DNA from: Thiocapsa rosea
GTDB lineage: Bacteria; Pseudomonadota; Gammaproteobacteria; Chromatiales; Chromatiaceae
Length of the DNA stretch: 64,000 nucleotides
Direction: 5' to 3'
Assembly (NCBI RefSeq): GCF_003634315.1
Contig: NZ_RBXL01000001.1
Span: 4,258,501-4,322,500 of the forward strand
The position numbers and the translations under genes were made by a program. Below are positions 3,449 through 29,145 of this stretch, one piece after another (positions within the stretch are counted from its first letter, which is position 1; each line of letters begins with the position of its first letter). The notes below the pieces were generated by a model. It saw nothing but the letters and a program-made list of their open reading frames with translations, was not told the DNA's origin and ran no database searches.

Positions 3449-4315
3449 ATGATCAACGAGGAGTCGCAGCGCGTGCGGGAGTTGCTCCGGGAGGTCAAGT
3501 ACCCCGGCTTCTCGCGCGACATCATCGCCTCGGGGTTTGTCGGGGACATTCTCGCCATCGGGCCGATGGTGGAGGTCGAGTTCAAGCCCGACACGCGCGA
3601 CGAGACCAAGGTGGCCACCATGGAGCGGCAGATTCGCGATGTGCTTCAACGCGCGGACTTCGCGGACGTGCAGATCCGTCGGATCGCGCCCTTCGTCCCG
3701 GATGTGCCGCTGCGCAGCGCCGAAGACCTCGCGAAGGAGCTCCGCAAGAAGCCCGAAGGCCCGAGCGCGACGATGAGCAGACTCATGACGCCGCTCCAGG
3801 CCGAGTTCTTGGAGGAAGGCGAGCTGCCGGAGCCGGATCTGCTCGCCATCGCGCTCGGACGCCATGACGTTGCGCCCGCAGCCGGCTATCGGCCGGGCGG
3901 TCCGAATCCGCTCAGCGGCCCGCGTGAATCCATCGACTACGACATCGGTATTCCCGTCCTGCAATGGGATATCGATCCGCACGATCCGCAAGCCAAGACC
4001 AGTCAACACGAGATCAAGGTGGGCGAGTGGGATTACCGCGTCTGGTGGCAGGCCCATCGCGACGGCGGGCTGCTGTACGTCTCCATGCAGGCGATGAAGG
4101 AGGACTGGGTCGACCACGACAACAACGCGGTCCCCCATCCGATCGGTCGATCCGAGGCGGTGAACCTCGTCTACGACGAGCGGCGCAATGCGGTGGTGGC
4201 GATCTACGGGACGGTCCGCGATTTCCGCCCGTTCGTCAAGGCTTTCGGGCTGGCCCATGCCAGCGAAACCGGTACTCAAGTCGGACCGGAAACCCAAGAG
4301 GCAGAACAGCAATGA
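3449..4315 (+). CDS. DUF59/MIP18-domain protein with unknown C-terminal domain, first gene of nar/nxr-like operon
   Basis: This is a 288-residue soluble protein. Residues 1-95 match the DUF59 (MIP18/SufT-like) iron-sulfur assembly fold: helix RVRELLREV, then SRDIIASGFVGDI, a strand VEVEF and a second helix and strand. The C-terminal part (about 165-288) has WDIDPHDPQ, WDYRVWWQAH and repeated aromatic strands and is unknown to me. ATG 3449 is preferred over 3431 because GAGGAG lies nine bases upstream of it. The stop overlaps the catalytic-subunit gene (ATGA), so it is translationally coupled. A role in maturing the iron-sulfur-rich NarG/NarH pair, or as an operon-specific chaperone, is inference. 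Confidence 0.75.
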   Translation: MINEESQRVRELLREVKYPGFSRDIIASGFVGDILAIGPMVEVEFKPDTRDETKVATMERQIRDVLQRADFADVQIRRIAPFVPDVPLRSAEDLAKELRKKPEGPSATMSRLMTPLQAEFLEEGELPEPDLLAIALGRHDVAPAAGYRPGGPNPLSGPRESIDYDIGIPVLQWDIDPHDPQAKTSQHEIKVGEWDYRVWWQAHRDGGLLYVSMQAMKEDWVDHDNNAVPHPIGRSEAVNLVYDERRNAVVAIYGTVRDFRPFVKAFGLAHASETGTQVGPETQEAEQQ

Positions 4316-7300
4316 GCAAGACCAAAGACGACGGCAACGGCAACGGTGGCTCCCGCTGGTTCCGCGAGCTCGACGAGCCGCGCAAATGGGAAGACTTCTA
4401 TCGCCGCCGCTGGCAATACGACAAGTCGGTGCGCACGAGCCATAGCGTCAATTGCTCCGGCTCCTGCTCTTGGGAGGTCTTCGTCAAGAACGGCATGATC
4501 ACCTGGGAGCTGCAGAAGACCGACTGGCCCCAGATCAACGACGAGACGCCCAACTACGAGCCGCGCGGCTGCCAGCGCGGGATCTCGGCGTCCTGGTATC
4601 CCTACAGTCCGGTGCGTCCGAAATATCCCTACGTCCGCGCGGTGCTGCTCGACTTCTGGAGGGCCGAGCGCGAAGCCGGGAAGGATCCGATCGCCGCCTG
4701 GGCCGCGATCGTCGAGAACCCCGAGCGTTCCAAAGCCTACCGCAACGCCCGCGGCAAGGCCGGCTGGCGTCGCACGAGCTGGGACGAGGCCACCGAGATC
4801 ATCGCCGCGGCGAAGATCTACACCATCAAGGAGCACGGCGCCGACCACCTGGCATCCTTCTCGCCGATTCCGGCGATGAGCATGGTGAGCTTCCTCTCCG
4901 GTCATCGCCTGTCGAATCTGCTCGGCGGGACCATGCTCAGCTTCTACGAGTGGTATCACGATCTGCCGCACGTCATGCCGATGATCTGGGGCGATCAGAC
5001 CGATGTGCATGAATCGGCCGACTGGTATCAGAGCGCCTATTGGATCGTGATGGGCTCGAACCTGCCGATGACCCGCACGGCGGATGCCCATTTTGCCTCC
5101 GAGCACAAATACAACGGCGGCAAGCTGGTGAATCTCTCGCCGGACTATTCCGACGTCACCAAGTTCGCGGACCTTTGGGTTCCGGTGCGCCCCGGTACGG
5201 ATACGGCATTCATTCTTTCCTGTATTCACGTCATCCTGCAGGAATTCCATGTCAATCGACGTTCCGAGTATTTCCACAGCTATGTGGCGCAATACACCAA
5301 TCTGCCCTTCTTGGTCATCCTGGACGAGGAGGGCGACCATTACGCGAGCGGTCGATTCCTGCGCGCCAGCGATGTCGCCGCCTATGCCGACGAAGAATTG
5401 GCCGACTGGAAGCTGCCTTGTTTCGACAAACAGGGCGAGCTGCGTCTGCCGGGCGGGACGCTGGGCTTCCGTTGGGAGGAGAAGAACACCGGGCGCTGGA
5501 ACCTCAAGAACGAGGACGCGGTGACGGCCCAGCCGTTCGATCCGCTGCTCACACTCATGGACGGCGACTTCGAAGAGGTCATCGTCGAGTACGCCGACTT
5601 CACGCACACCTTCAACGTCGAGTTCGGGACCACGGCGCTGCGGGGCGAGAAGGCGAGGCAGAGTCTCCGTGGCGTGCCGAGCCGCGTTCTGACCAAGAAG
5701 GACGGCACCAAGGTGCGCGTCGCCACGGCCTACGATCTGCTGCTCGCCAGCTTCGGCGTGAACCGCGGTCTCTCCGGCTCGGGCTACCCGAAGGACTACG
5801 ACGACGCCTCGGAGGCTTACACCCCGGCCTGGCAGGAGCAGGAGACGGGCGTGGACCGCAACCTCGCGATCCGCGTGGCGCGCGAGTGGGCCGACACCGC
5901 CGAGAAGACCAAAGGCAAGTGCCTCTTCATCACCGGTTCGGGCATCCTGCACTGGTACCACGGCGGGTCGCTGACCTATCGCTCCGAGGCCGTCATGGGG
6001 ATCCTCACCGGGTGTCAGGGGCGCAACGGCGGCGGGTTCGCGCACTACGTGGGCACCGAGAAGATCCGCAACGTGGCGGCCATCGGGACGATCGGCAATG
6101 CGGCCGACTGGGGCAACGTCGGGCGGCAGATGAACTCCACCTCCTATTTTTACTTCCACACGGATCAGTGGCGCTACGACGGCATGAGCCTGGATCCGCT
6201 CTGGGCGCCGCGTGCCAAGGAGATGCCCGCCAAGGCCAATCATGCCGCAGACATGAACGCGGTCGCGGTGCGCAACGGTTGGCTGCCGTTCTTCCCGCAG
6301 TTCGACGAGCGCAATCCCACGGATGTCATGCAGGACGCGCGCAAGGCCGGGTGCGAGAGCCTCGACGATGTGAAGACATGGGTCGCGCAGCAGTTCAAGG
6401 AGCGCAAGCTCAAGTTCGCCCTGCCCAATGTGGATGCGCCCAAGAACCACCCGAAGGTCCTCTGGATCTATCGCGGGAATCTCATCGGTACCAGCATGCG
6501 CGGGCATGAGCTCAATCTGAAGCACATGCTCGGCACGCACAACAATGTGCTCGGCGGCGAGACCCGCGCCAAGGACATGGTCAACGAGATCGACTGGACC
6601 GAGAACGCGCCGATCGGGAAGCTGGATCTCATCTACAACGTCAACCTGCGGATGGACTCCTCCGCGAACTACTCCGACATCGTGCTCCCCACCGCGCACT
6701 GGTACGAGAAGTTCGATCTGACCTGCACTGATCTGCATTCCTTCCTGCATCCCTTTACGCCGGCACACGACCCGGCCTATGAATCCAAGCACGACTGGGA
6801 GGCCTTCCGACTCATCGCCGAGAAGATCAGCGAGCTGGCCAAGGTCCATCTACCCGATCCGATCGAGGATCTGGTGATGACGGCACTGAGCACGGACACG
6901 CCCGACGAGATGGCGCAACCCATGGGCGAGCTGCGCGACTGGTGGACCGGCGAGAGCGAGCCGATTCCCGGCAAGACCTTCCCGAACGTCAGTGTCGTGA
7001 CGCGTGACTACACCAGGGTCCACGACATGTACACCACGTTGGGTCCGGCGGTCACCAAGCCGAACGGCTACGGCGCCAAGGGGGTCAAGGGCGACCTCGC
7101 CGAGGCGTACGAGCAGATGAAGGAGAGCTATCTGGTCGGCGAGAAGCAGGGCCGGCCGAACATGGAAACGGCCGCGAAGGTCTGCGAGGTGATCCTGCGG
7201 ATCTCGCCCGAGAGCGACGGCGAGCTGTCCTATCAGATGTTCAAGAAGCTCGAGGAGCGTTGCGGCGTGCCGCTTGCGCATATCGTCGAGCATGAGCGGG

Positions 7301-8091
7301 AGACCGCCTACCACTATCCCGATCTCATCTCTCAGCCGAGGCGGGCGTTGACCTCGCCGCATTGGTCCGCCATCGAGACCAAGGGGCGGACCTATTCGCC
7401 CTGGACGCTGAACATCGAGGCGCTCAAGCCCTTCCACACCCTCACCGGACGACAGGAGATCTATTACGACCACCGCATGTTCCGCGATCTGGGCGAGGAC
7501 TTCCCGGTCTACAAGCCGCCGGTGGACATGGTGTCGATCGGCGACGTGGCCCAGAAGGACATCAAGATGAAAGGGGCGAAGCTGTTCCGCTTCATCACCC
7601 CGCATCAGAAATGGGGCATTCACAGCATGTTCGGCGATTCATGGCAGATGCAGAACATGTTCCGCGGCGGGCCGACGGTCTGGATCAACGACGACGACGC
7701 GCGCGATATCGGTGTGAAGGACAACGACTGGGTGGAGATCTTCAACGAGAACGGGATCCAGGTCGCCCGAGCAGTGGTGAGCCATACGGTGCCGCGCGAC
7801 ATGTCGATCGTCTATCACCAGACCGAGCGTCACGTGAACGTACCCTTCTCGTCGTTGGCAAGGGAACGCGGGGCCAGCGATCTGCGCGGCGGCAACAACA
7901 ACGCCACCACCCGCATCATGATGAACCCCGCGACCATGGTCGGCGGCTACGCTAATTGGACCTATTGGCTCAATTACCAAGGGACCAGTCCATCGGAGCG
8001 CGATTGCGTGGTGCTCATCCGCAAGAAACCGATGGAGTCGCGCGGTCGCAAGGTCATTTACCAAGAGTCACAGCTGAGCGTCGGGGCATAA
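4312..8091 (+). CDS. narG: Nar/Nxr-type molybdopterin catalytic subunit (nitrate reductase or nitrite oxidoreductase alpha)
   Basis: At 1259 residues this is close to E. coli NarG (1247) and collinear with it throughout. It carries the FS0 ligands His44, Cys48, Cys52 and Cys87 (H-x3-C-x3-C...C) and Asp217 in YEWYHDLP, which matches the Mo-ligating Asp of NarG. NarG landmarks include HESADWYQS, LHWYHGG, HMNSTSYFY-type (here QMNSTSYFYF) and TPHQKWGIHS. There is no Tat signal, so it faces the cytoplasm. It catalyses nitrate/nitrite interconversion with electrons passing to NarH. The Nitrobacter-type NxrA is in the same family, so the direction cannot be read from motifs. It overlaps the preceding gene by ATGA and is followed after three bases by narH. 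Confidence 0.95.
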   Translation: MSKTKDDGNGNGGSRWFRELDEPRKWEDFYRRRWQYDKSVRTSHSVNCSGSCSWEVFVKNGMITWELQKTDWPQINDETPNYEPRGCQRGISASWYPYSPVRPKYPYVRAVLLDFWRAEREAGKDPIAAWAAIVENPERSKAYRNARGKAGWRRTSWDEATEIIAAAKIYTIKEHGADHLASFSPIPAMSMVSFLSGHRLSNLLGGTMLSFYEWYHDLPHVMPMIWGDQTDVHESADWYQSAYWIVMGSNLPMTRTADAHFASEHKYNGGKLVNLSPDYSDVTKFADLWVPVRPGTDTAFILSCIHVILQEFHVNRRSEYFHSYVAQYTNLPFLVILDEEGDHYASGRFLRASDVAAYADEELADWKLPCFDKQGELRLPGGTLGFRWEEKNTGRWNLKNEDAVTAQPFDPLLTLMDGDFEEVIVEYADFTHTFNVEFGTTALRGEKARQSLRGVPSRVLTKKDGTKVRVATAYDLLLASFGVNRGLSGSGYPKDYDDASEAYTPAWQEQETGVDRNLAIRVAREWADTAEKTKGKCLFITGSGILHWYHGGSLTYRSEAVMGILTGCQGRNGGGFAHYVGTEKIRNVAAIGTIGNAADWGNVGRQMNSTSYFYFHTDQWRYDGMSLDPLWAPRAKEMPAKANHAADMNAVAVRNGWLPFFPQFDERNPTDVMQDARKAGCESLDDVKTWVAQQFKERKLKFALPNVDAPKNHPKVLWIYRGNLIGTSMRGHELNLKHMLGTHNNVLGGETRAKDMVNEIDWTENAPIGKLDLIYNVNLRMDSSANYSDIVLPTAHWYEKFDLTCTDLHSFLHPFTPAHDPAYESKHDWEAFRLIAEKISELAKVHLPDPIEDLVMTALSTDTPDEMAQPMGELRDWWTGESEPIPGKTFPNVSVVTRDYTRVHDMYTTLGPAVTKPNGYGAKGVKGDLAEAYEQMKESYLVGEKQGRPNMETAAKVCEVILRISPESDGELSYQMFKKLEERCGVPLAHIVEHERETAYHYPDLISQPRRALTSPHWSAIETKGRTYSPWTLNIEALKPFHTLTGRQEIYYDHRMFRDLGEDFPVYKPPVDMVSIGDVAQKDIKMKGAKLFRFITPHQKWGIHSMFGDSWQMQNMFRGGPTVWINDDDARDIGVKDNDWVEIFNENGIQVARAVVSHTVPRDMSIVYHQTERHVNVPFSSLARERGASDLRGGNNNATTRIMMNPATMVGGYANWTYWLNYQGTSPSERDCVVLIRKKPMESRGRKVIYQESQLSVGA

Positions 8092-8094
8092 ACC

Positions 8095-9642
8095 ATGCGT
8101 ATCAAGCAACAGATGGGTATCGTCTTCAACCTGGATAAGTGTCTGGGTTGTCAAACCTGCACCATTGCGTGCAAGAACGTGTGGACCAACCGCGAAGGCG
8201 CGGAATACATGTTCTGGAACAATGTCGAGACCAAGCCGGGTGCGGGCTATCCCAAGCAATGGGAGAACCAAGACAAGTACCGCGGTGGTTGGAAGGAGGA
8301 TCCGGGTGCGGATGCGCCCAAGCTGAATCAGGCCTCGCGCTTTTGGGAGATGATCAGCCTCTTCTACAACCCTGTTCTGCCGCAGATGGACGACTATTAC
8401 GGCAAGGGCCCCTTCACCTTCACCTACGAGGATCTTCATTCGGAGCAGCCGACCAAGTATTCGCAACCGGTCGCACGCCCCAAGTCGCAGATTACCGGCG
8501 AGGAAGACATCGAGCTGACCTACGGCGTGAATTGGGAGGACAATGGCGCCGGCACCCATGAAGAGGGAACGGGCAAGCTCGATTACAACTTCATGGACAT
8601 GACGCCTGCGGCGCGTCAGGCGCTTCTGAAGTTCGAGAACTCCTTCATGATGTATCTGCCGCGCATCTGCAATCACTGCCTGAATCCGGCGTGCGTAGGC
8701 TCCTGCCCATCGGGTGCGAACTACAAGCGCGAAGAGGACGGCGTGGTCCTGATCGATCAGGATCGGTGCCGGGGTTGGCGCTATTGCGTCTCGGGTTGTC
8801 CTTACAAGAAGACCTATTACAACTGGCGCACGGGTAAGTCGGAGAAATGTATTCTCTGCTTCCCGCGGCTCGAAACCGGCCAGCCGCCGATGTGCTTCCA
8901 GGCGTGCGTGGGTCGTATTCGCTATCTCGGCCCGCTGCTCTACGATCTTGATCGGGTCGCCGAGACGGCGAATGCGCCTGAGCACGAGTTGGTGGATCGG
9001 CATCGCGACATCATCCTGAACCCCTTCGACCCGGAGATCATTGCCGAGGCGAAGCGTCAAGGCATCTCGGACAACTGGCTGGATGCCTGCCGCCGCTCGC
9101 CGGTCTACAAGATGGTCAAGGAATGGGAGATCGCGCTGCCGCTGCATCCGGAGTTCCGCACGCTGCCGAGCCTCTTCTATATCCCCCCGGAGAGTCCGGT
9201 GCAAACGGCCAAGCCGAATGATCGCGGCACGCTCGATATGGTCGACGGCGGCACGGTGCTGCCGGATCTGAAGGAGTTCCGCATTCCGATCGAATATCTG
9301 GCCCGACTGTTGGCTGCGGGCAATACGAAGCTGGTCGAGACGGCCCTGCTGCGCCAGCTCGCATTGCGCGAGTTCCGTCGCCAGGAGCGTGTGGAGGGTC
9401 GCACCGACGATACCGTCCTGAAGGCCGTCGGACTGACGATCGAGCAAGCACGGCATATGCATCGGCTGCTCTCGCTCGCGCACTTCCACGAACGGTTCGT
9501 TATCGCGACCTCGCGCACGGAAGACACCGACAACGCGCCTTACCTGGAGCGTGGTTTCACCGGGTACGACCTGCTCGCCCCCGAGCAGAGTCCGAAGCGG
9601 CGCACATCGTTCCACGGCAACAAGATGGGTGTGGGGAGCTGA
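8095..9642 (+). CDS. narH: Nar/Nxr beta subunit, iron-sulfur electron-transfer protein
   Basis: This 515-residue protein carries four ferredoxin-type cysteine groups: CLGCQTCTIAC near residue 19, CNHCLNPACVGSCP near 191, CRGWRYCVSGCPYKK near 223 and the CILCFPR/CFQAC pair near 260. The tryptophan in CRGW marks the [3Fe-4S] cluster, as in NarH and NxrB. It relays electrons between the alpha subunit and the membrane haems. The downstream overlap-free spacing (two bases to narJ) and common strand show one operon. It is full length and undamaged. Confidence 0.95.
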   Translation: MRIKQQMGIVFNLDKCLGCQTCTIACKNVWTNREGAEYMFWNNVETKPGAGYPKQWENQDKYRGGWKEDPGADAPKLNQASRFWEMISLFYNPVLPQMDDYYGKGPFTFTYEDLHSEQPTKYSQPVARPKSQITGEEDIELTYGVNWEDNGAGTHEEGTGKLDYNFMDMTPAARQALLKFENSFMMYLPRICNHCLNPACVGSCPSGANYKREEDGVVLIDQDRCRGWRYCVSGCPYKKTYYNWRTGKSEKCILCFPRLETGQPPMCFQACVGRIRYLGPLLYDLDRVAETANAPEHELVDRHRDIILNPFDPEIIAEAKRQGISDNWLDACRRSPVYKMVKEWEIALPLHPEFRTLPSLFYIPPESPVQTAKPNDRGTLDMVDGGTVLPDLKEFRIPIEYLARLLAAGNTKLVETALLRQLALREFRRQERVEGRTDDTVLKAVGLTIEQARHMHRLLSLAHFHERFVIATSRTEDTDNAPYLERGFTGYDLLAPEQSPKRRTSFHGNKMGVGS

Positions 9643-9644
9643 CC

Positions 9645-10394
9645 ATGAGCGCAGTCCAATCGACCGAAGCCTACGTATCGGGTCCGGGTGCGTCCGGAGC
9701 AGTCTCGACGGGGTCGGCCGGCTGGGATCTCGGGGCCATGTACGGGTTGATCGCAGAGCTTTTGCTCAATCCATCCGTCCGGGACGCCGGGCGGGTGGAG
9801 CGCTTCCTCCAGGCCATCCCGGAGACGCCGATGCGCGAGCGCATCGAGCGTTTCCTGGCATCCCCAGCCGCGCACAACGTCGACGAGTACACCGCCACCC
9901 TGGAGCTGACGCCGCCCTGTCCGCTCTACCTGGGGTCGCACATGTACGAGGAGCCCAACTCCTGCCGGGGCGCCGGTGCCTGCGGGCGCAATCAGTACAT
10001 GATCGAGCTGAAGGCGAGTTACGAGCATTTCGGGTTCGATCTCGCCATCACCGAGCTGCCTGATTTTTTGCCGGTGATGATCGAGTTCCTGGCCGTGAGC
10101 AGCGCGCATCCGGAACGCGACGGTATCGGGCTGCGACGCCGCTTCGTAGACCAATACCTGCAGCCCGGCATCCCGGCGATGCGCAAAGCGCTGCAGAAGT
10201 ACGAGAGCGTCTACGACCTGCTGATGGAAGCGCTCGAGTTTGTCGCGGAGGAGGATCTGGAGCGTCTCGCCGATGATCCCGTCTGGCTCGCTCCGGAGGT
10301 TCAAGCGACGATCCCGGTGCGCAAGGGTACCTCGTCGACGCCGGGGCTCTCGCCATCTCCTGAACTGTCCACCACCGGTTGGGGGCGCCAATGA
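9645..10394 (+). CDS. narJ: Nitrate reductase molybdenum cofactor assembly chaperone
   Basis: This 249-residue TorD/NarJ-family protein is an all-helical private chaperone that binds the apo-alpha subunit and gates cofactor insertion and membrane docking. Family features include YGLIAELLLNP near the N-terminus and the PDFLPVMIEFLA segment (NarJ DHLPVVLEFL) near residue 145. It begins two bases after narH and overlaps the next gene by ATGA. The Ser/Gly-rich start and Pro/Ser tail are probably disordered. The family call is firm; private pairing with this alpha subunit follows from operon position. Confidence 0.9.
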   Translation: MSAVQSTEAYVSGPGASGAVSTGSAGWDLGAMYGLIAELLLNPSVRDAGRVERFLQAIPETPMRERIERFLASPAAHNVDEYTATLELTPPCPLYLGSHMYEEPNSCRGAGACGRNQYMIELKASYEHFGFDLAITELPDFLPVMIEFLAVSSAHPERDGIGLRRRFVDQYLQPGIPAMRKALQKYESVYDLLMEALEFVAEEDLERLADDPVWLAPEVQATIPVRKGTSSTPGLSPSPELSTTGWGRQ

Positions 10395-11926
10395 ACAACA
10401 TCCTGTTTTCGAGTTATGTCATCTGGGGTGTCTTCCCCTACGTGGCACTGACGCTCTTCTTCGTCGTACCCTTTATTCGGATGGTCTATCGGCCGTTCGG
10501 GATGTCGACCCGCGCGAGCGGGATCTTCCATGGCCAGGGCATCCTCGGACTCGCCGCGCATCTTCTGCATTGGGGCATCTTCCTGGTCTTCTTTGGTCAT
10601 CTCGCCGGATTGATCGGCGGGATGCTGGGGTGGCGGAGTTGGGTCGGCGCCTTCTTTTGGTTGGCGACACTCGGTGGTTTGGTCGCGATCATCGGGTCGG
10701 TGATTGCACTGATCAGGCGGACTGTTGTTCCCGAGATGCGCGCGATGAGTCAGCCCGATGACTACATCGTGCATCTGTTCCTCATCGCGATTCTGGGCGT
10801 TGCCATCTATCAAGCGTTGGGGGATCGTATTTGGGGCGTCTCCTATACGGCAGCGCCTTGGTTCGCCAGCCTTTGGCGGCTTTCACCGCAGCCGGAGCTG
10901 ATGGCATCCGCGCCGCTGTTGTCGAAGGTCCATATCCTGCTCGCGTTCGCCTTCGCGGCCTATTTCCCCTTCACGAAGCTGATCCATGCCTGGACGCTGC
11001 CGGTCAACTATCTGGTGCGACCCTATCAGGTCTTGCGCACGACGGCGAAGAAGTTCCAGAACGGCTGGGTGTTGGGGTGCTGGGAGTTCAAAGGCGTCAC
11101 CGACAAGTCCTATATGACCTATCTGACCGCAGGTGTAGTCGGCGTCTTGGTCGTCATCGCCTTCGTCCTGCCTAGTCCGAAAGGCGATGGCCTGGTTCAA
11201 GCCGCGCATGCGGCGACATCGGTCGAGCCGACGGGGCCGGACTCGAGTCAAGCGCAGAAGGTTCTGGAAGGCTATCCGCTCTATGTCAGCCAATGCGCGC
11301 GCTGCCATGGTCTCCAGGGACACGGAGACGGTCCGGGCGCGAATTCTCCGACCTTCTCCGTCGTTCCCAGAAACCTCGCCGAAGGCCATTTTCAGTTCAT
11401 CTCGACATCGAACGGGGTCGCTTCGGACGAGGATATCCGGCATGCCATCGTCCACGGGCTGACCGGTTCCGGAATGCCCGGTTTCGCGGCACTCTCGGAG
11501 CGGCAGATCGACTCGCTGGTGCGTACGGTCGAGCAGTTCTGGAAGGACCGACCGACGCCGGGCGAGACGATCGAGGTTCCGGCGCGACCCGAGCCGACGG
11601 TCGCCATGATCAAGGAGGGCAAGGAGCTTTACGCCGGCATGTGCGCGGTCTGTCACGGCCCGACCGGCGCCGGCGACGGTGTCCTGACCGCGCTGCGAAC
11701 GGACGCGGCGGGTCGCACTGTGCCAACGCGCAATCTGCGTACCGAGCCGCTCAAGGGTGGATCGAGCGAGACACAGCTCTACTATCGCATCGCCGCGGGG
11801 CTGCCGAGAAACAAGGATGAATGGCTGATGCCCGCCTATGCGAATCTGGGCCCGGAGAAGATCTGGGCACTGATCACCTACCTGGAGTCGGAGGTGTTTC
11901 CGCAACGGCGCATCGCCGGACGCTGA
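10391..11926 (+). CDS. narI: NarI-type cytochrome b fused to di-haem cytochrome c
   Basis: Residues 1-230 are a NarI gamma subunit with all four haem b ligands conserved in position: His60/His70 and His181/His199, spaced exactly as in E. coli NarI (10 and 18). Unlike NarI, the chain then crosses the membrane once more (about 243-262). It enters the periplasm and carries two c-type haem sites, CARCH (302-306) and CAVCH (418-422), in tandem class-I-like domains. The extra helix explains how the C-terminus reaches the compartment where haem c is attached. The complex could therefore exchange electrons with periplasmic cytochromes as well as quinones. It is the last gene of the operon, overlapping narJ by ATGA. 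Confidence 0.93.
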   Translation: MNNILFSSYVIWGVFPYVALTLFFVVPFIRMVYRPFGMSTRASGIFHGQGILGLAAHLLHWGIFLVFFGHLAGLIGGMLGWRSWVGAFFWLATLGGLVAIIGSVIALIRRTVVPEMRAMSQPDDYIVHLFLIAILGVAIYQALGDRIWGVSYTAAPWFASLWRLSPQPELMASAPLLSKVHILLAFAFAAYFPFTKLIHAWTLPVNYLVRPYQVLRTTAKKFQNGWVLGCWEFKGVTDKSYMTYLTAGVVGVLVVIAFVLPSPKGDGLVQAAHAATSVEPTGPDSSQAQKVLEGYPLYVSQCARCHGLQGHGDGPGANSPTFSVVPRNLAEGHFQFISTSNGVASDEDIRHAIVHGLTGSGMPGFAALSERQIDSLVRTVEQFWKDRPTPGETIEVPARPEPTVAMIKEGKELYAGMCAVCHGPTGAGDGVLTALRTDAAGRTVPTRNLRTEPLKGGSSETQLYYRIAAGLPRNKDEWLMPAYANLGPEKIWALITYLESEVFPQRRIAGR

Positions 11927-12120
11927 TCGCCGCGACCGCATAGCCTCGGGTCGCCGTATGGCCCTCGGCGTGCGGTGCAGTGGCAACGGCACCCCATCGA
12001 AGAACCTCTGACAAACGCCGCAGGACGACTCGTCCGGCGCTGCGGCACCGCGGGTCATCCGTCCGGCGACGTCCGGGATCCGCGGGATCATCACTCCGAA
12101 TCCGAGGCGCCGGCGCAACG

Positions 12121-13209
12121 ATGGCATCTCCAACGCGCTCGCAGGCCGTCTCGACCGTGGCTCGGTATTGGATCGAGAAGCTGCCGCCGTCTTACTTTTC
12201 ATTGGTCATGGCGACGGGCATCCTCTCCATTGCGTGTGATCTGGTCGGCCTCGACTGGATCGCCATGCCCTTGCTCTGGGTCAACCTGCTGGCCTTCGGC
12301 GTCTTGTGGCTGATGACCGGCATTCGGGTCCTGGTCTGTCCCGCGCATCTCCTCGACGATCTCAGGGCGCATGCCTTGGGTCCGGGGTATTTTACGATCG
12401 TTGCGGGCACCTGTGTTCTGGGGGCACAGATCCTCACGTTGACGGGGAAGCAGGACCTTGCATTCGGGCTTTGGATCTTCGGCGCATGCCTGTGGCTCCT
12501 GATCACCTATGCCTTTTTTACCGCCATCATCGTTCATCCGAGCAAGCCGTCCTTGACGGATGGCCTCAGCGGTGTGTGGCTCATTGCATCGGTTGCCACG
12601 CAGTCCATTGCCGTACTGGGCACCATGCTCGCGTCCGGTTTTCCGGAGTATCAGCAGCTGATGCTCTTTCTCGGTCTGTTCTTTTATTTCATGGGGTGCA
12701 TGCTCTATATCAACATCATCGCGCTAGTCTTCTATCGCTTGACCTTCATGCAGTTGGAGCCGGCGAGCTTTACCCCGCCATACTGGGTCAGTATGGGCGC
12801 GACCGCGATCGCCACGCAGGCCGGGGCGACACTGATTCTCCATGCCGAGGAATCGCGCTTGCTTGGCGAGCTGATTCCGTTCCTCAAAGGTTTCACCCTC
12901 TTCTTTTGGGCCGCCGGGACCTGGTGGATACCGCTCCTCATAGCCCTGGGGATCTGGACGCATTGGCTCAGACGCGTGCCGATCGTCTACACACCGTTAT
13001 TCTGGGGCGCGGTGTTTCCCTTGGGCATGTATACGGCGAGCACCTCGTTGTTGGCGAAGGCATTGCCGCTGGACGGCCTGACCTGGATCCCGGCGATCAC
13101 CGTCTACATCGCGCTCGTAGCCTGGGGGCTGACCTTTTTCGGTCTTCTCAGGCGTTTGTCCAGAGCGATCGGGGCTTTGGTCAGAGTCTCCGTTTCCGCA
13201 GGGGGTTAA
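12121..13209 (+). CDS. TDT/SLAC1-family anion channel or transporter
   Basis: This is a 362-residue integral membrane protein with about ten hydrophobic helices. The opening LPPSYFSLVMATGILSIA matches the TehA/SLAC1/Mae1 (voltage-dependent anion channel) family. The chosen ATG 12121 puts the family start at the N-terminus; an upstream ATG at 11980 would add an Arg-rich, implausible leader. Family members move small anions such as nitrate, chloride, malate or sulfite. Next to a Nar/Nxr operon that lacks narK, a nitrate/nitrite channel is an attractive inference. The gap of 194 bases suggests its own promoter. Confidence 0.85.
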   Translation: MASPTRSQAVSTVARYWIEKLPPSYFSLVMATGILSIACDLVGLDWIAMPLLWVNLLAFGVLWLMTGIRVLVCPAHLLDDLRAHALGPGYFTIVAGTCVLGAQILTLTGKQDLAFGLWIFGACLWLLITYAFFTAIIVHPSKPSLTDGLSGVWLIASVATQSIAVLGTMLASGFPEYQQLMLFLGLFFYFMGCMLYINIIALVFYRLTFMQLEPASFTPPYWVSMGATAIATQAGATLILHAEESRLLGELIPFLKGFTLFFWAAGTWWIPLLIALGIWTHWLRRVPIVYTPLFWGAVFPLGMYTASTSLLAKALPLDGLTWIPAITVYIALVAWGLTFFGLLRRLSRAIGALVRVSVSAGG

Positions 13210-13212
13210 CGA

Positions 13213-13255
13213 ATCCCATCCAAGAACATCGCATACCGCGCCGGGTGCGGTTTAA
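13213..13255. repeat. Half copy of TTAAACCGCG repeat family
   Basis: The segment carries CCCATCCAAGAACATCGCAT and ends in GCGGTTTAA. It matches the right half of the copies at 44302-44388 and 48519-48604. It lies in the short gap between two convergent genes. Confidence 0.75.
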
Positions 13256-13303
13256 GGACGTGGAACATTCCGGATAATCGCCTCGCGTCGCGCCAAGCGC
13301 CCC

Positions 13304-13945
13304 TCATCGGATCGACTGCACATCGAGTTGGCAGGCAGCGAGAAAATCCTTGCGCATCAGGAGCCCGAGGAGACGACCGCGCTCGTCGACGACCGGCATG
13401 CTGCGCCCGCCGTGGCTCTTGAAGGCGGACATGATCTCCGAGAAGCCGGCGTGCTCGGGTACGCAGATCGCCGGGGATGTCATCATCGCGCTCGTCGCGG
13501 TTTCGTGACAGCAGTGGGCGAGTCGGTCGCATTGCTCGAGCAATCGCGGAAGCAGCTCCAAAAAACTCTCCGCTCCGAGTCGCTTGAGAATATCCGTCTC
13601 GGTCAGGATCCCCCTCACCAGACCACCGCCCACGACCACCGGCAGCGCCTTGACGCCTTGGCGGACGAACAATCCGGCCGCTTGGTGAAGCGGTGTCGTC
13701 GGCTGCAGCGGTTGGATCGGCGAGCGCATGAGGTTTCTCGCACACATGCGGCTATTCATGCGCTCGACGGCATGGGCATGGGCGAGGTGATAAATGGTTC
13801 TGAAGTCGGTCGTCGTAATGTCGATATAGCCCGGGATCTTCCGCATCGCATCCAGGATGTCGTCGTCGGAAAGTTCGAGCTCCCGGATCTCGTCGATGTC
13901 GGCGTGGTCCGGTTCCTGAAAGAGATGAAGATGGTTCTCTGTCAC
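13304..13945 (-). CDS. CBS-domain pair protein
   Basis: This 213-residue soluble protein has two CBS motifs. One begins near residue 69 (MRSPIQPLQPTTPLHQAAGLF...GILTETDIL) and the second near 153 (MTSPAICVPEHAGFSEIM...LGLLMRKDFL). CBS pairs bind adenine nucleotides and gate transporters or enzymes. In many HPP-family transporters a CBS pair is fused behind the membrane domain. Here an HPP protein without CBS lies nearby, so this may be its detached regulatory partner (inference). The start is GTG with GGGGG seven bases upstream. An FNR/DNR-like box lies about 75 bases upstream. Confidence 0.8.
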   Translation of the reverse strand: MTENHLHLFQEPDHADIDEIRELELSDDDILDAMRKIPGYIDITTTDFRTIYHLAHAHAVERMNSRMCARNLMRSPIQPLQPTTPLHQAAGLFVRQGVKALPVVVGGGLVRGILTETDILKRLGAESFLELLPRLLEQCDRLAHCCHETATSAMMTSPAICVPEHAGFSEIMSAFKSHGGRSMPVVDERGRLLGLLMRKDFLAACQLDVQSIR

Positions 13946-14016
13946 CTGATGCCCCCAATGATCGGTTTCAGCGCCGCTGGCCGAGCCTATTAGGCGTGGC
14001 TCATCCGCAGATCGCC

Positions 14017-14030
14017 TTGAGGCAGATCAA
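14017..14030 (-). promoter_or_regulatory. FNR/DNR-type operator upstream of the CBS gene
   Basis: The sequence TTGAGGCAGATCAA fits TTGAN-N4-NTCAA, the palindrome bound by FNR, ANR and DNR regulators. It lies 72-85 bases before the GTG start of the CBS gene, a usual activator distance. Two similar boxes occur in the same island. Binding is inferred, not shown. Confidence 0.6.
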
Positions 14031-14548
14031 TCGACGTGTTTCGGCTGATGCCCGAGCACCGGTGACTGCTCCGAGCGCATCGCCGTGCCGTCCATCCCGA
14101 GCACCTGTCCGAGGAGCTGTTGCGAGCGTTCGGCGATAAAGGCCGGGGAGAGGCGGCGCTCCGCGAACAAGAGCTCTCGAGTGGCCCGACGATCCTGGTA
14201 GAGGATCTGCTCGGGTGTCGGACTAAAGGGCCGCTCCAGGCAGATGCGTGCGATACGACCGAGATTCACGCCGCGACCGTCGTCGAGCAGGATCAGGTGT
14301 GGTGCGAGACCCCGAGCCGGATCCGGTCGAGGAAACTCCAGGACGTCGAGCAGGACGAAGGGCTGCCCGGTCTGGCGAATCCCGAGTTGGATCTCGGTGG
14401 GCTCGAGCTCGACGAGATAGACGGTCCCGCCCACGGCCTCGCGCAGTCGCTCGACCTGACGGGCATAGTCGGCGCTCGGCCAGAGTCGATCGTCGTCGTC
14501 GCTCGTCTCCTGTGCCGTCTGCTCGAAACGGGAGTCCTCCCTGTTCAT
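14027..14548 (-). CDS. Hypothetical protein, 173 residues
   Basis: I do not recognise a family. From ATG 14548, with GGAG upstream, the protein starts MNREDSRFEQ, has an acidic QETSDDDDR segment, and then a sheet-rich middle. A helical C-terminal part contains RRATRELLFAERRLSPAF. No signal peptide or membrane segment is visible. It is divergent from the HPP gene and shares with it a region containing an FNR/DNR-like box, so it may respond to the same nitrogen-oxide or oxygen signal. Codon use resembles the neighbours. Confidence 0.65.
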   Translation of the reverse strand: MNREDSRFEQTAQETSDDDDRLWPSADYARQVERLREAVGGTVYLVELEPTEIQLGIRQTGQPFVLLDVLEFPRPDPARGLAPHLILLDDGRGVNLGRIARICLERPFSPTPEQILYQDRRATRELLFAERRLSPAFIAERSQQLLGQVLGMDGTAMRSEQSPVLGHQPKHVD

Positions 14549-14605
14549 CGATCGCCTCGCTCTCCGTTTGTGTTGTATGACGTGCCGACAGATTTCATGC
14601 CCGGC

Positions 14606-14619
14606 TTGATATGGGTCAA
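14606..14619 (+). promoter_or_regulatory. FNR/DNR-type operator between divergent genes
   Basis: TTGATATGGGTCAA matches TTGAT-N4-GTCAA, the form common in denitrification promoters. It lies 58 bases before the hypothetical gene on the minus strand and about 115-135 bases before the HPP gene, so it could serve either or both. Confidence 0.65.
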
Positions 14620-14732
14620 GGTTCGGACCGAGCGGCAAGATTCAAATCCCGGTCAAGGGCTCGGTGCGGTGGTGGAACGGATCGGACGCGCGCCCGAACC
14701 GCCCTGCCGTCGCACCGGAGTCTCCGGTACGC

Positions 14733-15302
14733 ATGCCAATTGGAGGCAATGCCTTGAGCCTGATGGCCTACGTCCGAAAGATGCGCGGGACCACACGCGG
14801 AAGTCCGCCGCGAGTCAGCAATCAGGAGGTCTTCTGGTCGTGGATCGGTGCATTCCTCGGGATCGGCCTGGTTGGTTGGCTCAATCAGGCGTTCTTCTCG
14901 GGGACCGATCTTACCCTGACCGTCGGCTCGCTGGGTGCATCCGCGGTTCTGCTCTACGGGGCGGTGCGCAGTCCATTGGCGCAGCCCCGCAATCTGGTCG
15001 GCGGCCACGTCATCTCGGCGCTGGTCGGTGTGACCAGTTGGAAGCTCCTCTCGGCAGACCCCTGGCTGGCCCAAGCGGTGGCCGTGGCGACGGCCATCGC
15101 GCTGATGCATCTGAGCAAGACCCTGCACCCGCCGGGCGGGGCAACCGCGCTGATCGCGGTCATGGGCTCGGAGGAGATCCACGCGATGGGCTATGTCTAT
15201 GTGCTGATTCCGGCGACGCTCGGGCCGCTGATCCTGTTGGGCGTGGCCTTGATCGTCAACAACATCCCGGCAACCCGACGTTATCCGGAGAGCTGGATAT
15301 GA
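14733..15302 (+). CDS. HPP-family membrane protein, candidate nitrite transporter
   Basis: This is a small membrane protein of about 189 residues with several hydrophobic helices and the family signature LHPPGGATALIAV near residue 128. HPP proteins in cyanobacteria and chloroplasts are known nitrite transporters, which fits a Nar/Nxr neighbourhood. The start is uncertain. ATG 14733 is used here, but TTG 14754 has a better ribosome site (GGAGG seven bases upstream) and a GTG at 14664 would be longer. The stop overlaps the following cytochrome gene (ATGA). The family's usual CBS extension is absent; a separate CBS gene lies nearby. Confidence 0.82.
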   Translation: MPIGGNALSLMAYVRKMRGTTRGSPPRVSNQEVFWSWIGAFLGIGLVGWLNQAFFSGTDLTLTVGSLGASAVLLYGAVRSPLAQPRNLVGGHVISALVGVTSWKLLSADPWLAQAVAVATAIALMHLSKTLHPPGGATALIAVMGSEEIHAMGYVYVLIPATLGPLILLGVALIVNNIPATRRYPESWI

Positions 15303-16015
15303 GTCGAACCGGGTCGCGTGCTGCTCGATGCTTCGGCCTCGTCCTCGGCTGTCTGCTCGCCGTGCCGGTTGCGCTCGCCGAGGAGGTCGAGGATCGGTTC
15401 GCCGACGCCGACCTCGACAACGCCGTCGAGATCAACGAGGTCTGTGCCGGCTGCCACGGCGAGTACGGCCAAGGCGGAAAGGACGGCGAATATCCCCGGC
15501 TGGCCGGTCTCCCCGCCGCTTTCATCGCACGGCAGCTCGACCTGTTCCGAGTGCGCGAGCGCGAGAACCTCGCCATGGTGGAGCACACGGACCACCGGCA
15601 GATGCCGGACTCGGATATCCGCGATATCTCGGCCTTTCTCGCCGCGATCGAGCTGCCGAGTCGCCTCCCGCCGGTCGACGAGAACGCACCTGATTTCAAC
15701 GCCTACGAGCGGCTGATGGCCACCAAACAGATCGTCCAGATCCCGCGCGCGGAGGGCGATACGGTTGCCGGCGGGCGCCTTTACGACAAGGAGTGCGCCT
15801 CCTGCCACGGCCGCGACGGCCGGGGACGCGAGCGCGATGCCGTACCTGTGTTGGCCGGTCAGTACACCGGGTACATGCTGCGCCAGGTCGACAAATACAT
15901 CGACAAGAGGCGTGTCCATGACCCGTCCGACCCGGATGCCGAGGAGCTGCTCGCGGCCTTCACCGCCGAGGAACTGCGCGACATCTTCGCCTACATCTCG
16001 ATCCTGGACGATTGA
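15299..16015 (+). CDS. Exported di-haem cytochrome c (c4-like)
   Basis: This 238-residue protein has an N-terminal signal peptide (CFGLVLGCLLAVPVALAEE) and two class-I haem sites, CAGCH (49-53) and CASCH (166-170). Each is followed by a methionine-containing stretch that could give the sixth ligand (QMPDSDI after the first). Two fused c domains resemble cytochrome c4, a periplasmic electron carrier. It overlaps the HPP gene by ATGA. Its position suggests it takes electrons to or from the NarI-cytochrome c, possibly linking the island to an oxidase or photosynthetic reaction centre (inference). Confidence 0.88.
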   Translation: MSRTGSRAARCFGLVLGCLLAVPVALAEEVEDRFADADLDNAVEINEVCAGCHGEYGQGGKDGEYPRLAGLPAAFIARQLDLFRVRERENLAMVEHTDHRQMPDSDIRDISAFLAAIELPSRLPPVDENAPDFNAYERLMATKQIVQIPRAEGDTVAGGRLYDKECASCHGRDGRGRERDAVPVLAGQYTGYMLRQVDKYIDKRRVHDPSDPDAEELLAAFTAEELRDIFAYISILDD

Positions 16016-16056
16016 TCGTCGAGGCCCCGCTTTGCATCCGTACCCGAGGAAATCCA

Positions 16057-16437
16057 ATGCCGTTCGGCCGACGCATTGCACGCGAGAAGAAGACCATCAC
16101 CGCCATGATGGCGATCTACTGCCGGGATCATCACCCCGGCCCCAAAGGACTCTGCGTCGAGTGCGTGTCCTTGCTCGACTACGCGCATCGCCGTCTCGAC
16201 ACCTGTCCTTTCCAGGAAGAGAAGCCGGCCTGCAATCTCTGCGAGGTGCACTGCTACAGCGCCCTGATGCGCGAGCGGGTGCGCGAGGTCATGCGCTATT
16301 CCGGCCCCCGGATGCTCTGGCCCCATCCGATCCTGAGCCTCGGGCACATCCTCGATAAGCTCCGTCCGGCGCCTCAGTTGAAGAAGGCGACGCGTGGACA
16401 GACAAACAAAACGCCGTCGGACACGACGCCCGAGTGA
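16057..16437 (+). CDS. YgbA/nitrous-oxide-stimulated-promoter family protein
   Basis: This small cysteine-rich cytoplasmic protein of 126 residues has the family pattern EKKTITAMMAIYCRDHH, then CVECVSLLDYA, CPFQEEKPACNLCEVHCY and MRYSGPRM. The paired cysteines may bind metal. In E. coli the homologue YgbA belongs to the nitric-oxide response. ATG 16057 is chosen over 16012 because GAGGA lies just upstream and the protein then begins like the family. It is probably cotranscribed with HPP and the cytochrome from the DNR-like box at 14606. Confidence 0.85.
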   Translation: MPFGRRIAREKKTITAMMAIYCRDHHPGPKGLCVECVSLLDYAHRRLDTCPFQEEKPACNLCEVHCYSALMRERVREVMRYSGPRMLWPHPILSLGHILDKLRPAPQLKKATRGQTNKTPSDTTPE

Positions 16438-16468
16438 TCGCGTTTCCAAGCGATGCCCCGCGGCCGCA

Positions 16469-17650
16469 TCAGCCCGGGCGCCCGTCCGGCCGGGGCGCGA
16501 CCAGCATGGGTGCGTGAACCCAGAGAAAGAGCCCGAAGGCGAGGATCCAGCAGAGTCCGGCGCTCATCAGCCAGGCGTGATAGCCGGCCGGGTACATCAG
16601 AGGTGCGAGACCGCGCAGGCCCGCGGCGAGGTTGATCAGAACGAAGGCGAGGATGGTCAGGCGAGCGGCCTGCATCGCGCGACCCGTATGACCGATCGCG
16701 ACCCGCGCCATCATCCCGAGCGTCACCACGCCGATCGCCCCGATGGTCAGGGTGTGCAGCGCGCCGCGGGCGGGTAGGGTGGTGAAGGCGGGGAGCCCGT
16801 CCAGGATCAGGCCGAACGCGAGCCAGAGCAGACCCACATAGAGCACCGTCAACATGGGGGTTGTCCACACCCGTCGATCGTGCCAGCCGGCGATCCGCAC
16901 CAGAAGCACCAGGCCCAACGCGATCGCGAGGGCGCCCGACGGGGAACCGTGGGGCTGGATAAGGTCCGCGATCAGGAGTGCTCCGGCGAGCAGAAAGATC
17001 AGGCGCTCGACGAACTGGATGCTCTTGGGCTTGGCACCGGCGATCCCGCGCTCGATGAAGAAGGGCATCACCCGGCCCGAGACCAGAAGCATCGTCAGAA
17101 TCACCAGGTCCAGCATCATGCGGTGACCCCGCGCCACCCCGCCCGGAAGGATGCCGAGCACATCGAGATGGACCAGCGCACTTGCGAGGGTCATGCCGGC
17201 GAACAGCAGCAGGAACACGCGGTTCACCGGATTGGGGCCAAACCAGAGCGGCCGGCGCAGCGCGAACGCCAGGACCGGAAAGAAGGCGACATCCGTCAGC
17301 GCGACCAGCAGCGGCGGCAGTCCAAGCCAGGGCATCAGACGCGCGGCAAGCCAAAGCGCGACCAATCCCGCGAGTGCCGGGCCGGTCGGCGTGTCCATGC
17401 CGCTCCAGTTGCGTACGGCGGTGAGCAGGAACCCCGCGATGACGGCCGCCAGATAGCCGAACAGCATCTCATGGGCGTGCCAGGCCGGCCCCGCCAGATA
17501 GCCCGGCTGCGGGAAATGGCCCGTCAACATCGCCAGCCAGACCAGGACAGACAGTACGGCGGCGATCCCCGCCGCCAGAAAAAACGGCCGGAAGCCGAGC
17601 GCAAGGACGGCGATGCCCTGTTTCCTGTTGGTGCCGGACGCGATGCGCAT
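16469..17650 (-). CDS. nnrS: NnrS family haem/copper membrane protein, nitric oxide tolerance
   Basis: The roughly 393-residue protein has about twelve hydrophobic helices. It carries typical NnrS motifs: LGFRPFFLAAG near the start, WHAHEMLFGY, GRVMPFFIERG and LHTLTIGAIG with GMMARVAIGHTGR. NnrS proteins protect against nitric oxide and are controlled by NnrR/DNR in denitrifiers. ATG 17650 is used; a TTG further up would add only a short leader. A near-perfect FNR/DNR box lies 80 bases upstream. It is convergent with the YgbA gene. Confidence 0.9.
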   Translation of the reverse strand: MRIASGTNRKQGIAVLALGFRPFFLAAGIAAVLSVLVWLAMLTGHFPQPGYLAGPAWHAHEMLFGYLAAVIAGFLLTAVRNWSGMDTPTGPALAGLVALWLAARLMPWLGLPPLLVALTDVAFFPVLAFALRRPLWFGPNPVNRVFLLLFAGMTLASALVHLDVLGILPGGVARGHRMMLDLVILTMLLVSGRVMPFFIERGIAGAKPKSIQFVERLIFLLAGALLIADLIQPHGSPSGALAIALGLVLLVRIAGWHDRRVWTTPMLTVLYVGLLWLAFGLILDGLPAFTTLPARGALHTLTIGAIGVVTLGMMARVAIGHTGRAMQAARLTILAFVLINLAAGLRGLAPLMYPAGYHAWLMSAGLCWILAFGLFLWVHAPMLVAPRPDGRPG

Positions 17651-17729
17651 AGGGTGGGATCCGCTGTTGGTGGGTGCCGAGCTCAAGGCTGTTCGTCGCC
17701 TACGCTAACGACGGCATGGATACAGGGCC

Positions 17730-17743
17730 TTGACGTGCATCAA
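17730..17743 (-). promoter_or_regulatory. FNR/DNR-type operator upstream of nnrS
   Basis: TTGACGTGCATCAA is an almost ideal TTGAC-N4-ATCAA palindrome. It is centred about 86 bases before the nnrS ATG, a distance compatible with activation at about -41. It is the best of three such boxes in the island. Confidence 0.7.
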
Positions 17744-20431: not shown

Positions 20432-20506
20432 GCGGGAATAGCTCAGTGGTAGAGCACAACCTTGCCAAGGTTGGGGTCGCGAGTTCGAATCTCGTTTCCC
20501 GCTCCA
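20432..20506 (+). tRNA. tRNA-Gly (anticodon GCC)
   Basis: The 75-base cloverleaf includes an encoded CCA. The acceptor stem GCGGGAA pairs with TTCCCGC, the anticodon loop is TTGCCAA with GCC at 20464-20466, and the T-arm contains GTTCGAATC. It reads glycine GGC/GGU codons. Confidence 0.97.
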
Positions 20507-29047: not shown

Positions 29048-29145
29048 CGGTTGCTTCCCGTCGACTGTGCATGAGCCGCTTGAATTCGTGCCTATCGGCT
29101 CGAATTCCAGGGCATCGTCAAAAGGAGCTTCAGGATTACCGTCGT

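What the first reader, a model, noticed from the sequence alone, without database searches (positions are those of the whole stretch)
3449..17743. Nitrogen-oxide island whose Nar-type enzyme may reduce nitrate or oxidise nitrite
A single 14-kb block holds a Nar/Nxr operon, two candidate nitrite/nitrate anion transporters, an extra haem c protein, YgbA and NnrS, but no NarK and no NarXL-type sensor. Established: cytoplasmic Nitrobacter-type NxrA/B are close NarG/H relatives, and some Thiocapsa strains use nitrite as photosynthetic electron donor. If the host is a purple sulfur bacterium, this could be a nitrite-oxidising phototroph or a lineage intermediate between Nar and Nxr.
Basis: partly seen in the sequence, partly recalled or inferred. 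Interest (0 to 1): 0.8.

Follow-up and report, generated by a model that had tools for sequence, protein, structure and literature searches.

The report
Thiocapsa nitrite-oxidising enzyme operon (KS1 type)
A purple sulfur bacterium carries the gene set for an enzyme that very probably takes electrons from nitrite, making nitrate, to feed its light-driven metabolism; the enzyme is nearly identical to one known from a cultured nitrite-oxidising relative.

Summary
The Nar/Nxr operon is real (3449-13209). Its 1259-aa alpha subunit is 98% identical to that of Thiocapsa sp. KS1, a cultured phototrophic nitrite oxidiser, and the host genome has two reaction-centre genes. In the tree it falls with KS1 (100/100), apart from 19 NarG rows and from Nitrobacter NxrA (one clade with Nitrobacter: AU p 1.7e-45). 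So it is a KS1-type NXR, not a Nar-Nxr intermediate.

The gamma subunit is fused to a two-haem cytochrome c domain: 24 of 26 KS1-type loci, 0 of 26 control NarI. A protein precedes nxrA whose C-terminal domain is in 26 of 26 KS1-type loci and 0 of 29 controls; its DUF59 half was detected in 18 of 26. The fusion suits electron exit from nitrite to periplasmic cytochrome c.

The 14-kb "island" is two units: HPP, cytochrome c, YgbA and NnrS persist, whole or in part, in nxr-less Thiocapsa genomes. A NarK lies about 23 kb upstream. KS1-type operons also occur in Rhodovulum, Halochromatium, Bauldia, Planctomycetota and Deinococcota. The direction of catalysis is inferred, not measured.

The parts
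3449..4315 (+). 288-aa operon protein: N-terminal DUF59/MIP18-like (Fe-S assembly-like) domain plus a C-terminal domain of no family found; overlaps nxrA by 4 bases
   Evidence: Foldseek best hit 3lno, DUF59, E 4e-4; profile hit 2cu6 E 4e-4; PF01883 E 0.0028, under its cut-off; C-terminal domain in 26 of 26 KS1-type loci that hold the upstream DNA, 0 of 29 controls; DUF59 half detected in 18 of 26
4312..8091 (+). nxrA/narG-like alpha subunit, 1259 aa, KS1 type
   Evidence: TIGR01580; 98% identity to KS1 and T. roseopersicina DSM 217; tree; His, Cys and Asp at the places recalled as FS0 and Mo ligands are conserved
8095..9642 (+). nxrB/narH-like beta subunit, 515 aa
   Evidence: TIGR01660 655.8 bits; 98-99% to KS1 and DSM 217
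9645..10394 (+). nxrJ/narJ-like assembly chaperone
   Evidence: PF02613 over cut-off; TIGR00684 just under cut-off
10391..11926 (+). nxrI/narI-like gamma subunit, 511 aa, with a sixth hydrophobic helix and two class-I cytochrome c domains (CARCH at 302, CAVCH at 418)
   Evidence: PF02665 156 bits, PF13442 and PF00034 two stretches each; haem-b His conserved; Met 362 and 480 invariant in 15 of 15 aligned; six hydrophobic helices; Foldseek on a weak model hits NarI and a cytochrome c subunit of a Kuenenia complex
12121..13209 (+). SLAC1/TDT anion channel, likely nitrite/nitrate passage (inferred)
   Evidence: PF03595 149 bits; follows NxrI in 13 of 13 loci of Chromatiales-like hosts and Rhodovulum; also in the Nitrobacter locus L211
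13304..13945 (-). CBS-domain pair protein: neighbour, not part of the operon
   Evidence: PF00571; present in 4 nxr-less Thiocapsa genomes, in G001 as a partial match
14763..15302 (+). HPP-family membrane protein: neighbour module
   Evidence: PF04982 201.6 bits; present without nxr in G004, G005, G008, a fragment in G001
15299..16015 (+). two-haem cytochrome c with a hydrophobic, signal-like N-terminus (by eye): neighbour module
   Evidence: PF00034; CXXCH at 49 and 166; present in nxr-less G005 and G008, not found in G001 and G004
16057..16437 (+). YgbA: neighbour module
   Evidence: PF11756 148 bits; present without nxr in G004, G005, G008, a fragment in G001 and G007
16469..17650 (-). NnrS: neighbour module
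   Evidence: PF05940 351 bits; 9 of 11 genus genomes have a match, 4 of 11 have nxr

Best explanation
The operon 3449-13209 encodes a KS1-type cytoplasmic nitrite oxidoreductase. Nitrite enters through the SLAC1/TDT channel and/or the NarK outside the window (inferred). NxrA oxidises it to nitrate at the Mo centre on the cytoplasmic side, and electrons pass through the Fe-S clusters of NxrA and NxrB to the two haems b of NxrI (inferred from conserved ligands). From there they do not go to quinone: they leave through the two haem-c domains that NxrI carries on the periplasmic side of an extra membrane helix, then to a soluble cytochrome c or HiPIP and the photosynthetic reaction centre (inferred). 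The 288-aa protein probably helps put Fe-S clusters or cofactor into NxrAB (inferred). Shown here: the genes, their kinship, the fusion and its conservation, and a phototrophic host. Not shown here: direction, rates, expression.
For: 98% alpha identity and 89-99% identity of subunits B, J and I to KS1 and DSM 217; KS1 is reported to oxidise nitrite phototrophically (PMC4041230 passages; PMC6050957 section 9). KS1-type clade 100/100, split from 19 NarG rows. Cytochrome c fusion in 24 of 26 KS1-type loci with a whole NarI against 0 of 26 control NarI, a Met invariant in each haem-c domain in 15 of 15, and an even number of helices that puts them on the side of the N-terminus, periplasmic in E. 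coli NarI (recalled). One NarG-type alpha in the genome and two Photo_RC genes.
Against: No activity, expression or knock-out data. The metal ligands are those of NarG, so they do not fix the direction; NXRs are called bidirectional in PMC6050957. A figure legend in PMC8387239 calls the KS1 enzyme a NAR, though it calls the Nitrobacter enzymes nitrate reductases too. E. coli NarI Lys86 (quinol site, recalled) is not kept in KS1-type NxrI, but nor is it in most other NarI aligned. L023 and L024, of KS1 type, lack the cytochrome c part. A c-type cytochrome gene also stands in the Thermus nar cluster, so cytochrome c alone does not prove the direction.
Confidence: 0.8

Rival explanations
1. It is a nitrate reductase in use: quinol or periplasmic cytochrome c gives electrons to NxrI and NxrA reduces nitrate to nitrite.
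For: Alpha and beta pass the NCBIfam narG and narH cut-offs; NarI haem-b ligands intact; the Thermus enzyme, in the neighbouring clade of the tree, has a c-type cytochrome gene beside it and is annotated as nitrate reductase.
Against: Near-identity to the enzyme of a known nitrite oxidiser and a clade split from 19 NarG rows; a fused haem-c domain would serve no purpose if quinol were the donor (inference).
Confidence: 0.1
2. A two-way enzyme: nitrite oxidation in light, nitrate reduction in the dark, set by the redox state of periplasmic cytochrome c. It overlaps with the best explanation, which concerns the main direction.
For: NXRs are described as bidirectional (PMC6050957 section 9); a cytochrome c link is reversible (inference); no second NarG-type alpha in the genome.
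Against: Nothing here shows growth on nitrate; not testable with these tools.
Confidence: 0.25
3. A single nitrogen-oxide island acquired together, with HPP, cytochrome c, YgbA and NnrS serving the NXR.
For: They follow nxr in the window and in L027/L244, and CBS and HPP follow nxr, after two further genes, in L004 and L029.
Against: CBS, HPP, YgbA, NnrS and UvrC are present in nxr-less G004, G005 and G008 and in broken form in G001, with the cytochrome c in G005 and G008; in these four, genes that look like MoaB/MoeA/MoaD by eye stand upstream of CBS.
Confidence: 0.08

Closest known systems
NXR of Thiocapsa sp. KS1 (Hemp et al. 2016, not held, recalled; named in PMC6050957 section 9 as the second cytoplasmic NXR type)
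   Same: 98% alpha identity and the same gene order, 288-aa-type protein, A, B, J, I with cytochrome c, TDT
   Different: KS1 has a 776-aa Mo-oxidoreductase and a 208-aa protein after TDT; DSM 217, Halochromatium and probably Thiocystis have the Mo-protein too, by eye. In the window and in L027 TDT is followed directly by CBS
Nitrobacter-type cytoplasmic NXR (L211, L212 of genome G873, taken as N. winogradskyi)
   Same: NarG-like A and B, a TDT channel nearby
   Different: 44-45% alpha identity; separate cytochrome c gene before nxrA and an FKBP-type gene between A and B; not one clade with the KS1 type
Thermus nar cluster (L210)
   Same: c-type cytochrome and a metal-sulfur assembly factor in the cluster; 50% alpha identity
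   Different: Cytochrome is a separate gene, NarI of 229 aa without haem c
E. coli respiratory NarGHI
   Same: Metal ligands of alpha and haem ligands of NarI
   Different: 44% alpha identity, no fused cytochrome c; other side of a 100/100 branch

Membership tests
KS1-type NXR | Alpha in one clade with KS1 NxrA | tested here: met
   21 rows, 100/100
KS1-type NXR | 288-aa-type protein before A and NxrI-cytochrome c fusion (signature proposed here) | tested here: met
   window; other loci:
KS1-type NXR | Nitrite-oxidising activity | not testable with these tools
   reported for KS1 itself (passages)
Nitrobacter-type NXR | Alpha in one clade with Nitrobacter NxrA | tested here: not met
   AU p 1.73e-45; Nitrococcus and Nitrolancea not in the tree
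Nitrobacter-type NXR | FKBP-type gene (NxrX, name recalled) between A and B | tested here: not met
   A ends at 8091, B starts at 8095; L211 has it
Respiratory NarGHI | narG and narH model scores over cut-off | tested here: met
   KS1 and Nitrobacter proteins were not scored, so whether the models part NarG from NxrA was not tested
Respiratory NarGHI | Alpha among the respiratory NarG rows | tested here: not met
   split from 19 NarG rows at 100/100; the same branch has SH-aLRT 92, not starred, in the quick tree with an outgroup row
Respiratory NarGHI | Plain NarI taking electrons from quinol | tested here: inconclusive
   fused haem c, but the residue aligned to Lys86 is not diagnostic

The most novel reading that the evidence does not exclude
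The KS1-type operon is a further, widely transferred lineage of cytoplasmic nitrite oxidation, marked by a gamma subunit that carries its own haem-c exit and by a dedicated maturation protein. It would make nitrite oxidisers of other purple bacteria (Rhodovulum imhoffii, Halochromatium, Thiocystis, Thiorhodococcus) and of uncultured Bauldia, Kordiimonadaceae, Planctomycetota and Deinococcota, and the fusion would be a sequence mark of NXR direction.
Probability: 0.35. Interest if true: 0.7.

Novelty: new member of a known kind. Interest (0 to 1): 0.45.

Why it matters
NarG and NxrA share a KEGG ortholog (PMC12361377 passages), so annotation alone cannot tell nitrate reducers from nitrite oxidisers. 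Here a fused cytochrome c and an operon protein were found in nearly all KS1-type loci and in none of the controls, which gives a testable marker. They also point to KS1-type operons in phototrophs beyond Thiocapsa and in lineages (Bauldia, Phycisphaerales, Deinococcota) for which I know of no nitrite-oxidising culture (recalled, not searched). The separate origin of the KS1 and Nitrobacter types, which PMC6050957 also describes, is recovered with other sequences.

Tried and rejected
Rejected: a lineage intermediate between Nar and Nitrobacter Nxr; one 14-kb functional island; absence of NarK as a clue (a NarK homologue of 449 aa, 38% identical to that of L013, lies in L249 about 23 kb upstream of nxr; in L005 the NarK gene 4322-5722 lies about 3.4 kb upstream of the operon, and in L027 a NarK match begins at 4130, about 5 kb upstream); the residue at Lys86 of NarI as a direction mark; alpha residues as a direction mark: the ligands are conserved, and 35 columns set the KS1 type apart from NarG, but their role is unknown; host = T. 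bogorovii BBS, taken to be G004 (contig of 5,649,927 bases, as in PMC10892978), which has no NarG-type alpha beyond one weak 25% match.

Led nowhere: the Nitrobacter plasmid aconitase as a kinship probe; the structure model of NxrI is weak (mean pLDDT 64) and used only for its Foldseek hits; the model of the 288-aa protein has a mean pLDDT of 69 with long stretches under 50. No Nitrococcus or Nitrolancea reference was identified.
Full report
What is there. The operon runs 3449-13209 on the + strand: a 288-aa protein, NxrA (1259 aa), NxrB, NxrJ, NxrI and a SLAC1/TDT channel; from the first gene to NxrI the genes overlap by 4 bases or stand 2-3 bases apart. Family scans put alpha and beta above the narG and narH cut-offs, NarJ and NarI above the Pfam ones. 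The window lies in a 6.11-Mb genome of two contigs in which a search with the alpha found itself and two weak matches (29-37% identity over part of the protein). Two Photo_RC genes were found.

Kinship. One scan of genome contigs gave 72 loci: 28 at 68-98% identity (L004-L029, L032, L057) and 44 at 43-48%, with none between. The closest are T. roseopersicina DSM 217 and Thiocapsa sp. KS1 (98%). In 112 related genomes, 6 have a match of 85% or more: 4 of 11 in the genus (own genome included) and 2 of 58 others in the family. In 397 genomes drawn from the order of Bauldia G112, 3 carry the type, G112 included (75-79%); in 301 drawn from the phylum of G117 (Chloroflexota), 2 carry a distant form at 60-61%.

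References. CbbL of a named N. hamburgensis plasmid was used to choose a centre, G292. In 391 genomes drawn from its family the five best-matching genomes (G928, G894, G957, G836, G873) have two alpha matches each, of 45-48% identity (one of them partial). In three, CbbL is 97-98% identical to that of N. hamburgensis (in G957 over 295 residues only); G928 and G836 gave only a 58% form, so they are called Nitrobacter-like by their alpha alone. G873 has a contig of 3,402,093 bases, which I recall as the size of N. winogradskyi Nb-255. Its locus L211 has a two-haem cytochrome c, NxrA of 1214 aa, an FKBP-type protein, NxrB, NarI, a weak NarK match and a TDT channel.

Tree. Of 76 alpha rows extracted, 52 were used in a quick tree with one very long outgroup row and 51, without it, in a careful one; 24 were left out for size (6 KS1-type, 1 Nitrobacter, 17 NarG). 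The KS1 type (21 rows) has 100/100, also without the distant Chloroflexota row L218. The KS1 type together with 4 Nitrobacter, 2 Thermus and 5 Chloroflexota rows is split from the 19 other NarG rows at 100/100 in the careful tree; in the quick tree with the outgroup this branch has SH-aLRT 92, under its star. Nitrobacter lies inside the Thermus and Chloroflexota rows. Holding the KS1 type and Nitrobacter together costs 211 log-likelihood units, AU p 1.73e-45. PMC6050957 (section 9 read) also lists the KS1 enzyme as a second cytoplasmic type; PMC8387239 (passages) instead puts KS1, Nitrolancea and the Nitrobacter type in one group, near E. coli Nar.

Gamma subunit. The four haem-b His of E. coli NarI (recalled) are kept in 31 of 31 sequences aligned; L213 and L038 gave no NarI. 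KS1-type NxrI adds a helix (242-260) and two class-I cytochrome c domains: 24 of 26 loci with a whole NarI have them, L023 and L024 do not, L021 and L026 are cut short; 0 of 26 NarI ORFs from 29 control loci, picked for having flanks, and not L218. Met362 and Met480 are invariant in the 15 sequences aligned, all of which were chosen for having the fusion, so both haems are likely His/Met, usual for high-potential cytochromes c (established knowledge). Foldseek on the weak model finds NarI of E. coli and chain B of the Kuenenia Kustc0457/Kustc0458 complex.

The 288-aa protein. Its first 80 or so residues are DUF59/MIP18-like by fold and by profile, under the Pfam cut-off by sequence. The invariant columns lie in the C-terminal part, many of them Trp, His and Arg. 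In NCBIfam the window protein has no match at E 0.01; of the 19 aligned relatives, one or two match Fe-S assembly families such as SufT and PaaD. The C-terminal domain is in 26 of 26 KS1-type loci whose contig reaches that far (L032 and L057 are cut), 0 of 29 controls and neither of L218 and L219; the DUF59 half was detected in 18 of the 26, and L017 and L023 seem to lack it as called here.

Transport. TDT follows NxrI in the 13 loci from Chromatiales-like hosts (some of them MAGs) and Rhodovulum, and in L014; ten other KS1-type loci have NarK-type proteins downstream; L024 and three cut loci have neither. Five of 29 controls also have a TDT, so it is not specific.

Neighbours. Of seven genus genomes without nxr, G004, G005 and G008 have CBS, HPP, YgbA, NnrS and UvrC (cytochrome c in G005 and G008, not found in G004), G001 has the stretch in broken form without the cytochrome c, G007 has a 66% NnrS and a YgbA fragment only, and G006 and G010 have no NnrS match. 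Upstream of CBS, G001, G004, G005 and G008 have genes that look like MoaB/MoeA/MoaD by eye; they were not found in the stretches fetched around nxr in Thiocapsa, apart from a MoaD-like match in Halochromatium L008. Upstream of nxr the window genome has what look like IS and restriction-modification genes, by eye (L245). Whether the operon was gained or lost at this place is not shown.

Literature. The listings of searches (13, 34 and 84 capped: 25 of 103, 20 of 56, 15 of 35) showed no title or abstract on the NxrI-cytochrome c fusion, the 288-aa protein or this operon in Rhodovulum, Halochromatium or Thiocystis; Hemp et al. 2016 (not held) and Schott et al. 2010 were not seen and may describe part of it. 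I recall from the Schott abstract that T. roseopersicina DSM 217 also oxidised nitrite, and from the Hemp abstract that KS1 NXR came from another nitrate reductase clade than other NXRs. PMC12361377 (passages) reports a Verrucomicrobiota single-cell genome with an NxrA 70.8% similar to that of KS1. Of PMC3578206, PMC8767323, PMC10892978 and PMC4041230 passages were seen.

Noticed in passing
window 29071-31221: A second molybdopterin oxidoreductase (717 aa), closest to formate dehydrogenase, PhsA and NasC models but far under every cut-off listed.
   Followed up: partly
L029 18980-21957; L004 18960-21940; L008 18979-21354: In KS1 a 776-aa Mo-oxidoreductase of no clear family and a 208-aa Urate_ox_N-like protein follow TDT; L004 has both and L008 the first, by eye. 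In the window and L027 there is no room for them.
   Followed up: partly
L024 10013-23757: The Kordiimonadaceae MAG holds a KS1-type operon and, on the other strand about 1 kb beyond it, what looks like a second Nar operon.
   Followed up: no
L023, L024: KS1-type gamma subunits that keep a sixth hydrophobic stretch but lack the cytochrome c part.
   Followed up: partly
window 20902-22047: A Fic/DOC protein with DUF4172, near the tRNA-Gly at 20432-20506.
   Followed up: no
window 1168-2475: An AAA ATPase (AAA_21, SMC_N matches) on the minus strand upstream of the operon.
   Followed up: no
G009 / G118 (Thiocapsa KS1): Listed genome size is 10.4 Mb against 3.3-6.1 Mb for the other genus genomes, so the assembly may hold a second organism.
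   Followed up: no
PMC10892978: LT988_06635, given there as respiratory nitrate reductase gamma subunit of T. bogorovii BBS, is matched to DsrM in the same paper's table; with no NarG-type alpha in G004 that part of the claimed nitrate reduction looks doubtful. Its other gene, a cytochrome c-type subunit, was not checked.
   Followed up: partly
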